A stretch of DNA of 64,000 nucleotides from Desmodus rotundus (Eukaryota; Chordata; Mammalia; Chiroptera; Phyllostomidae): contig NC_071397.1 of the NCBI RefSeq assembly GCF_022682495.2, forward strand, positions 3,749,082 through 3,813,081. Direction: 5' to 3'. The first letter of the stretch is position 1. Each line of letters starts with the position of its first letter. The position numbers were made by a program, and so were the translations under genes. The notes beneath the pieces were generated by a model, which saw only the letters and a program-made list of their open reading frames with translations, had not been told where the DNA came from and ran no database searches. Shown in pieces: positions 32,208-35,200 of the stretch.

Positions 32208-35200
32208 CTACGGTTAAAAACAGCACAAAAGGAACTGACCAACACTGACAAGTGACAAGACTCTGGAAATCCAGGTACTCCATAAAGAACCAAATTTTGC
32301 CACCAGAATCTAACCCTCCATTTACAAAGCACCTCTCTTCCTATTGCATTCCCTGGAAGTAAGCGCCTCCATTTTTCACGAGGGCCTAAAAGTTTAAGAA
32401 AATTTGTCCACTTCACCATTCACTTCATCTTGGCCCTGGTCAAACTGGGTAAGGCTATCAGGAACTAGGTATTTACTGAAATGAATATTCTAGAACATCA
32501 ATCTATTTTTCGCTTCTTTGATGTAACATTTTTTAAAAAAGATTAAGGCAATTATCAGTGGCTTATTAATGTAAATGCGGCTTTAAGATTTCTTCTTACA
32601 CAATGCTTATTCCACACCTCTTCTGGGGGCAGTGAGTGCCTGTTTAATTCCCTGCTTGGAACGGGCATGCCGTTACTCTGACTTTGCACACAAGCAGGAA
32701 CTCTCATGAAGCACTTCACTCCCAAACGAGGAACATTAAGAAATATTTCTGAGTATGCTTGTTGTCAGTGCTGAGAAAAATGGTTTTTCTCAGCAATTGT
32801 GTACAAGTTGTGAGGAAAAGGGAACCATAGCAAAAAGGGAAAAAGAAGGCCAGTTTTCTAGTCCCTTCTGAGTCAGGTTTTCCACATTTCAGCTTTTAAA
32901 CTTTATTTGAAATGCAAAAGAAATACATATTTAAATATGCCAACATATATTATCGAGTCAAAAATTTGAAAAGTTATCTTTGTTTCCTTCACTAAGTGAT
33001 AACAAACTTAGGAAACCACAAAGTACAAAATTAATCCACACGACTGACGCTGAAGTGGCTGTGGGAGGTGTCGGTGGGCTACAGGGTGAGAGAGATGCGG
33101 TCCTGACCTTAAGCTTAAACCAAAACCCGTGCTTGCCCTCTGACGGAGGCAGGGTTAGGCCAAAGGCTAGCAAAAACGTGCCCTTTTCCGGAAGTGCTGT
33201 GTAGGAGTCATCAACCACCTACGTGCAGGTACTATCCACAGAGTAACTAATTTAATATGACATAAACCCTACCAGGTCCCCACTGAGAAATCAGAGAGCT
33301 GAGGTTGTGTCAATGGCCACATAACTAGTGGAGCAGCTGGGAGATGAACCCCGTGGTCTGGCTCCAGCTTCTGCTCTTGACCACACTACTTCATCTCTCT
33401 GCTGAGTAGACCATCCTTCTGTAGGTGCCGGGAACATATACCCAGCTGTACTTACCTCTTAGTTTTTAAACACTTTTGCCCTTTAATGTCTGGGAACACA
33501 CACACACATTTATTTTACCTTTTTTGGTGAAAAACTCCTTGGAATATTTTCCTGCCACAATGAGCTTGCGAGGCACCTTCCCCAGAAGTTCTATGATCAA
33601 TGCAATGTGATCTGTGTTTTAAACATTTCAAGAGGGGGGACAAGACATACATAAGAGGAGTAACAAATGCAGTTCTAGACACTGGCAGAAAGTGCAGCAT
33701 GCACACGTCTCTGTAAAGCACTTCAGGCTTGCTTTCTGTCCTCAGTGGGAAGACGACGACTTTATCCATCTAACGGAGACTCCAGAAACCATAAAAAGAG
33801 CAGGTGCCCACTCCAGTGGCATGAGCAGTAAGTGAAAACATCTTGGTGTGCGTGCTCCGCTTCCTGCCGCTGTGTCCCCGGGGCCTAGCTGAAAACTCAT
33901 GCTAACACACTTCTTCTGTGACTGAGGAAGTGCTGTATTTCCCACCGAGGGCAACGCACCTTGGAATTCTGCCTATCAGCTCTATATTTTGCGCAACGTG
34001 GTCTAAAATAGAAGGGTATGAAGAACAGGGTCGAGAACAGGCTGTACAAGAGGTTTTTCTATGAACAGCTTTTCAAGGACTAGCTGTTTAAAAGTAACTA
34101 CAGATAAAACTAAGGCGACTCAAGGGAGACTGGGAAGGCCAAGAATTATTTCAGGTGGCTGGTCACCTGACCGTTGCTGGCATGTACCTTCTGGAGTTTA
34201 GAGGCTTATCTACACTTTTATTTCTATTTTGTCTATATACCTAAGTTCAGGTGGGATTTTTAGGAAAGGTAAAAAAATGTACCACTGTGCTTTTAGACAT
34301 TCTAGAACTGTTATTTATAAAATGTTCACGATGATTAAAGCACTAACATATGATTATATGAATTTCCACAATCACCCTGTACAACAGGCAAAAGATTTAT
34401 ACACCATTTTAAAGATGAGAAAATGGAACTTCAGAGAGAATAAATGGCCTCCTTAAAGCTACAGGGCTAAGGAGAGCTCGAATGCAAATGAAAACCCACA
34501 TCTTAGTCTAGTACAGTCTTGGTGTGCGTGCATGTTTTTAAAAATAAATCACACTTTTTAAGTAAACCAAGCACTAACATTTTAAAGTACAGCTACCTGA
34601 CTATTTGTAGGCCACTGAAATGTCCCAGGCACGTGGTGCCTGGTAACTGTCACGGCATAAACACGGACTGTGAGCACCAACAGGGACACGGGCAGTCTGC
34701 ATCGAGAAGCGGGCCTGCCGCCAGCCAGCAGCCACACTTACAGGCAGGTGACGAAAACAAGGATATGAAGAGGGTTTAAAAGTGCTGGCTCCTAGCCACA
34801 AGAGCTTTATAATGAATTTAATCCTGTAGTTATAGATTCATCACTGTCAAAAAAAACACCCCACTTACAAAGTTCCAATAATGTATCTTCTCGGGGAATA
34901 ATATGCTAGACAACTACACAGCTGGGAATTTGTGAAGGTTTGGGGTCATATCTGTTTCTCATGTAAATAACTTACTGGTGTCTTTTTAAAAGGGCTTTAC
35001 TATATGAATTTCCTATAACCTGTGGGCAGTTTTAATTGAATTTGTGGCTTGGTAACAAGTACTTGGCTGCCAAGAAATTTCTGCCAATTTTAGACAGAAC
35101 TTACAAGTAAGTATCTTTGTATAAATTCATTTTGAGACTGTGGTCTATCTTACTGTAAACTTCCTAGTAAAACCTTCGTTCTTCTATTTTTCCTATACCA

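What the first reader, a model, noticed from the sequence alone, without database searches (positions are those of the whole stretch)
33911..34002. A second, diverged copy of the SRPK1 docking-groove exon
On the minus strand, 299 bases upstream of the canonical exon (33611-33519), a sequence with its own acceptor starts in the identical phase. It encodes (D)HVAQNIELIGRIPR and CVALGGKYSTSSVTEE against DHIALIIELLGKVPR and KLIVAGKYSKEFFTKK. That is 14 of 31 identities, no gaps and the same length, while only about half of the bases match. A tandem exon duplication separated by a short intron is the classic layout of mutually exclusive or poison exons. SRPK1 regulates splicing factors, so self-control through such an exon would make sense. 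What I see is the homology, phase and acceptor. Its use in mRNA is inference.
Basis: partly seen in the sequence, partly recalled or inferred. Interest (0 to 1): 0.88.

Follow-up and report, generated by a model that had tools for sequence, protein, structure and literature searches.

The report
Ancient spare docking exon in SRPK1
An intron of the splicing-kinase gene SRPK1 holds a diverged second copy of the exon that builds part of its docking groove; its codon pattern suggests it was long kept as protein, it likely matches an exon pair that a human survey already listed, and in this genome its use would be predicted to cut the kinase short.

Summary
Minus strand 34002-33911 is a diverged tandem copy of SRPK1 exon 33611-33519: 14 of 31 residues identical, no gap, same acceptor phase, score 77 against 37 for the next window site. 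Base identity by codon position is 17, 21 and 8 of 31, which suggests long protein constraint; neutral decay from birth matched in 0 of 32,000 simulations. Hatje et al. 2017 already report a mutually exclusive exon cluster in human SRPK1, lost in Glires; very likely this pair, but their coordinates were not seen. New here is the state of the copy: no good in-frame donor. Its two good donors (43 and 92 nt) shift the frame and the last exon then gives TGA at once. Replacing the normal exon would give a truncated kinase with its stop in the last exon, where NMD is not expected; of four frame-shifting products only the 92-nt form joined to the normal exon looks like an NMD target. Use in mRNA and conservation in relatives could not be tested. 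Probably an old alternative exon, decaying or turned into an off-switch.

The parts
37270..37339 (-). SRPK1 exon before the pair (residues 541-563), ends in phase 1 at AAG|GTGAGT
34003..34022 (-). acceptor of the copy, TTCATACCCTTCTATTTTAG
   Evidence: score 8.64, 96th percentile of 4284 AG sites on this strand (recalled matrix)
33911..34002 (-). tandem copy of the docking-groove exon, 92 nt to donor GAA|GTGTGT; encodes (D)HVAQNIELIGRIPRCVALGGKYSTSSVTEE; frame-shifting
33960..34002 (-). 43-nt version of the copy, ending at its strongest donor AAG|GTGCGT; frame-shifting
   Evidence: donor score 9.02, 99.5th percentile of 3808 GT sites
33907..34002 (-). 96-nt in-frame version of the copy, donor TGT|GTTAGC (weak)
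   Evidence: donor score -0.03, 57th percentile
33519..33611 (-). canonical SRPK1 exon, residues 564-594 (part of the docking groove), 93 nt
32023..32207 (-). last coding exon, residues 595-655 and stop; begins GTGACC, so a shifted frame meets TGA at once

Best explanation
The segment is a diverged tandem duplicate of the SRPK1 docking-groove exon that was likely long kept as protein-coding sequence, is likely the counterpart of the published mutually exclusive exon cluster of human SRPK1, and in this genome would be predicted to truncate the kinase when spliced in. Shown: homology, phase, acceptor, codon-position pattern, donor positions and the resulting frames. Inferred: the spliceosome chooses between the copy and the canonical exon. 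If it takes the copy with the 43-nt or 92-nt donor and goes to the last exon, the message reads ...GRIPR-stop or ...TEEVT-stop inside the last exon, so the message would be stable and the protein would lack residues 595-655. If the 92-nt form is joined to the canonical exon, the stop falls 78 nt before the last junction and the message would be an NMD target. Either way the copy would now lower full-length SRPK1 rather than add a second working docking groove. Probabilities given to its present state: off-switch (truncation or NMD) about 0.45, decaying relic about 0.35, in-frame exon through the weak 96-nt donor about 0.15.
For: Homology far above chance. Base identity by codon position 17, 21, 8 of 31, Fisher p 0.002 for positions 1+2 against 3; 0 of 32,000 neutral simulations give this pattern. 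Of 14 identical residues only 3 use the same codon. The copy keeps D564, A567 and E571, named as docking-groove residues in PMC11809128 (passages). Of the SRPK1 exons found by tblastn in the window plus 60 kb upstream, only this one has a second copy, apart from weak low-complexity matches of the spacer. Hatje 2017 lists an SRPK1 mutually exclusive cluster in human, absent in Glires; its clusters were predicted partly by similarity, length and frame in neighbouring introns and filtered with RNA-seq (PMC5740500, sections 5, 10, 15). Frames and stops. Donor scores.
Against: No transcript evidence in this species. Codons 25-31 show no constraint (position identities 3, 4, 3 of 7), and no good full-length in-frame donor is left, which fits a relic as well as an off-switch. 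A strong acceptor followed by a donor this strong occurs at 8 of 153 strong AG sites on this strand (thresholds rounded, so the copy may or may not be among them), so splice-site strength alone is no evidence. The identity with the Hatje cluster was not checked against coordinates, and that set also holds some annotated pairs without sequence similarity. The PDB match of the copy is marginal on its own (best E 0.0011). I569, given a signalling role in PMC11809128, is N in the copy.
Confidence: 0.6

Rival explanations
1. Decaying relic: an ancestral mutually exclusive exon lost its in-frame donor in this lineage and is no longer spliced.
For: The nearest donor gives 92 rather than 93 nt; the in-frame donor at 96 nt scores -0.03; codons 25-31 show no constraint. 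Hatje 2017 reports loss of the SRPK1 cluster in Glires, so loss happens.
Against: 31 codons without stop or gap and a well-scoring acceptor persist.
Confidence: 0.35
2. Working mutually exclusive exon: the 96-nt form splices in frame and gives a full-length kinase with a changed docking groove (joins as ...TEEVCDLKHITK).
For: Frame is open; D564, A567 and E571 kept; fits the published human cluster type.
Against: The 96-nt donor is at the 57th percentile of all GT sites on the strand, against the 99.5th and 92.8th for the frame-shifting donors; the FF of the canonical exon is not kept.
Confidence: 0.15
3. Classic NMD poison exon added to the canonical exon for SRPK1 self-control. This overlaps with the off-switch share of the best explanation.
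For: The 92-nt form plus the canonical exon puts a stop 78 nt before the last junction.
Against: The other 3 of 4 frame-shifting products put the stop in the last exon. Paper searches showed no report recognised as such an SRPK1 exon (listed: 20 of 31, 13 of 13, 2 of 2, 5 of 5; judged from listings and some passages).
Confidence: 0.2
4. Chance resemblance or a retrocopy fragment of SRPK1 or SRPK2.
For: The copy scores slightly better against SRPK2 than SRPK1 in the PDB (21.6 against 19.6 bits).
Against: Score far above shuffles; tblastn of the whole kinase shows only residues 564-594 at the copy, bounded by the acceptor.
Confidence: 0.02

Closest known systems
Human SRPK1 mutually exclusive exon cluster (Hatje et al. 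2017, PMC5740500)
   Same: Same gene; clusters there come in part from similar, length-matched, phase-matched exons in neighbouring introns; the SRPK1 cluster is said to be absent in Glires.
   Different: Exon identity and coordinates not seen (main-text sections and passages only). The copy here has no good full-length in-frame donor, whereas the prediction required lengths differing in steps of three.
Unannotated tandem exon duplications (Ivanov and Pervouchine 2022, PMC9013439)
   Same: Duplicate exon in an intron of the same gene.
   Different: Their search found no pair below 57% base identity (results section read); this pair is at 46 of 93, so it would be missed.
Poison exons of splicing regulators (general class, recalled)
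   Same: Inclusion would insert a stop in a splicing-kinase message.
   Different: 3 of 4 frame-shifting products here stop in the last exon and would be expected to escape NMD.

Membership tests
Mutually exclusive exons | neighbouring homologous exons of matching length and phase | tested here: met
   31 against 31 codons, 14 identities, same acceptor phase; at base level 92 against 93 nt to the nearest donor
Mutually exclusive exons | each exon alone keeps the reading frame | tested here: inconclusive
   the full-length copy does so only with the weak 96-nt donor
Mutually exclusive exons | reads join each exon to the flanks and never both in a working message | not testable with these tools
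   no RNA data for this genome
Mutually exclusive exons | conservation across mammals | not testable with these tools
   no other mammal genome held; the published SRPK1 cluster is in the mammalian core set, among 29 clusters with scattered distribution, with loss in Glires
NMD poison exon | stop more than about 50-55 nt before the last exon junction | tested here: inconclusive
   met for 1 of 4 frame-shifting products (92-nt form plus canonical, 78 nt); the other 3 stop in the last exon
NMD poison exon | message rises when NMD is blocked | not testable with these tools
   no RNA data
Processed retrocopy | similarity runs across exon borders without introns | tested here: not met
   tblastn of the whole kinase shows only residues 564-594 at the copy

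The most novel reading that the evidence does not exclude
SRPK1 carries an exon swap that has been converted in this lineage from a docking-groove variant into a switch that makes a stable, C-terminally cut kinase with the acidic groove residues D564, A567 and E571 but without residues 595-655: a self-made decoy that could bind SR proteins without phosphorylating them.
Probability: 0.1. Interest if true: 0.7.

Novelty: new member of a known kind. Interest (0 to 1): 0.4.

Why it matters
SRPK1 phosphorylates the SR proteins that choose splice sites. A second docking-groove exon, old enough for its silent sites to be at chance level, would mean that evolution tried an alternative substrate groove or an off-switch in this kinase. 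The donor state here would let one test how a mutually exclusive exon dies or turns into a truncating exon.

Tried and rejected
Chance: rejected. Neutral decay since birth: rejected under a simple model (equal neutral rate in both copies, canonical protein fixed, canonical sequence as ancestor, indels only as a side estimate); decay that began later is not rejected. Retrocopy: rejected. Splice-site strength as evidence of use: rejected, since comparable pairs occur elsewhere; the splice-site frequencies were recalled, and the 20-base acceptor model undervalues the canonical acceptor, whose pyrimidine tract lies further upstream. A frameshifted reading of the last codons was considered by eye, not computed, and left open.

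Searches for relatives gave nothing: protein database (with the 56-residue frame, with a joined kinase segment; in both no candidate shared three words), viral contigs, bacterial and archaeal contigs. These collections seem poor in mammals, so this is no evidence of absence. In the own genome the copy query returned one hit, itself (3 candidates scored); but neither that search nor, whose query held the canonical exon, returned the canonical exon, so single copy is not proven. Dating the duplication through SRPK2 failed: an SRPK2 exon query returned only the copy, so SRPK2's own exon was not found; later attempts to locate SRPK2 did not complete, and SRPK3 was not searched. Residues 1-24, 132-160 and 251-259 of SRPK1 were not found in the stretch read, so second copies of those exons were not excluded; the per-exon borders used there were partly guessed.

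Full report
What is there. The exon for residues 564-594 lies at 33611-33519, follows a phase-1 donor at 37270 and is followed by the last coding exon at 32207. Its protein is identical to solved SRPK1 chains. At 34002-33911 a frame with its own AG encodes DHVAQNIELIGRIPRCVALGGKYSTSSVTEE, aligned without gap to DHIALIIELLGKVPRKLIVAGKYSKEFFTKK.

Is it more than chance. tblastn gives E 8e-7 against E 0.5 for the next site in the window; with the whole protein as query E is 6e-4 and 0.001 over 124 kb. The ungapped score is 77; the best other stop-free frame in the window scores 37, and the best in 60 shuffles of the minus strand 35. In the Protein Data Bank 13 of the 14 sequences the copy matches at E up to 10 are SR protein kinases, the other a ribosomal protein at E 1.4; the best are SRPK2 (21.6 bits, E 0.0011) and SRPK1 (19.6 bits), then yeast Sky1 (16.1). 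The copy shares 16 of 31 residues with SRPK2 and 14 with SRPK1, while SRPK1 and SRPK2 share 19 (SRPK2 residues 26-31 were recalled; they add nothing to the count with the copy but three to the count with SRPK1). So the copy keeps residues that canonical SRPK1 has since changed, or arose early; this is a lead, not a dating.

What kept it. The copy matches the canonical exon at 17, 21 and 8 of 31 first, second and third codon positions (Fisher p 0.002). Of the 14 identical residues 11 use another codon, among them Arg CGC against AGG and Ser TCC against AGC. A copy free of constraint from birth, beside a canonical exon held constant in protein and drifting at the same rate, never reached the observed combination in 8 x 4000 runs. 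Under an assumed indel rate of 0.1 per substitution, a neutral copy at distance 0.5 would be free of indels with probability 0.01. The pattern is clear in codons 1-15 (10, 12, 3 of 15), weak in 16-24 (4, 5, 2 of 9) and absent in 25-31 (3, 4, 3 of 7). No homology of the flanks was found. Third positions at chance level suggest an old duplication, by inference before the radiation of placental mammals.

Is it known. Hatje et al. 2017 (PMC5740500; read: outline, sections 5, 7, 10, 15, 33 and the passage on SRPK1) write that the mutually exclusive cluster in SRPK1 belongs to the core set of mammals, among 29 clusters of scattered distribution, and is absent in Glires. Their candidates include similar, length-matched, stop-free stretches in neighbouring introns, filtered by junction reads; the set also holds some annotated pairs without similarity. 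Of the SRPK1 exons found here, only the 564-594 exon has a second copy. The two are therefore very likely the same, but their coordinates lie in supplements that could not be opened. Searches for SRPK1 with poison exon (20 of 31 listed), mutually exclusive exon (20 of 117), homologous exons (3 of 3), exon duplication terms (15 of 105), unproductive splicing (13 of 13), SRPK1 exon (2 of 2), SRPK1 isoform or transcript terms (5 of 5) and Glires (1 of 1) gave no other report recognised as this exon. Of these papers I saw listings, and passages of PMC12907903, PMC11914300, PMC11172111 and PMC7725506.

How it would work here. The copy's acceptor scores 8.64 and the canonical one 0.95 on a simple recalled matrix, but the canonical pyrimidine tract sits further upstream, so the gap is overstated. 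Its donors are AAG|GTGCGT after 43 nt (9.02), GAA|GTGTGT after 92 nt (5.24) and TGT|GTTAGC after 96 nt (-0.03); a further in-frame GT after 57 nt, TCG|GTGGGA, scores 4.53 and would drop the last third of the exon; the canonical donor scores 7.45. Neither in-frame choice is both strong and full length. Because the last exon begins GTGACCTGA, the 43-nt and 92-nt forms stop within it at once...GRIPR-stop and ...TEEVT-stop. NMD is then not expected (established rule, recalled; that this is the last exon is inferred from the stop codon in it, and a further 3' untranslated exon was not excluded). The 92-nt form joined to the canonical exon stops 78 nt before the last junction and would be an NMD target; the 43-nt form joined to it stops in the last exon. 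The truncated products would keep D564, A567 and E571 of the docking groove (PMC11809128, passages), carry N for I569, and lack residues 595-655. Skipping both exons keeps the frame.

What is not shown. Splicing of the copy, its conservation in relatives, its link to the published cluster by coordinates, its copy number in the genome beyond one limited search and its age relative to the SRPK1/SRPK2 split. The species was not identified. Splice-site strength cannot settle use: 8 of 153 equally strong acceptors on this strand have an equally strong donor 30-200 nt downstream.

Verdict. A true, probably old tandem exon duplicate of a known kind, very likely already listed in human, with a new twist in this genome: its remaining good donors shift the frame, so it is either dying or has become an off-switch.

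Noticed in passing
window 45091-45183, + strand: A 31-codon frame resembling the endonuclease part of a LINE-1 element lies in an SRPK1 intron (named from recall; seen as the best unrelated score, 37).
   Followed up: no
L007 about 9019-9611 (59 kb beyond the window's end): Weak tblastn matches of the lysine-rich SRPK1 spacer fall on low-complexity and LINE-like sequence, not on a second exon copy (LINE label recalled).
   Followed up: no
window 32207-32199, - strand: The last coding exon starts GTGACCTGA, so the shifted frames tested at its junction meet a stop codon at once; frame-shifting splicing of the exon before it would truncate SRPK1.
   Followed up: partly
window 33612-33650, - strand: The canonical docking-groove exon has an unusual acceptor: the last 20 bases are A-rich and the pyrimidine tract lies further upstream.
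   Followed up: partly
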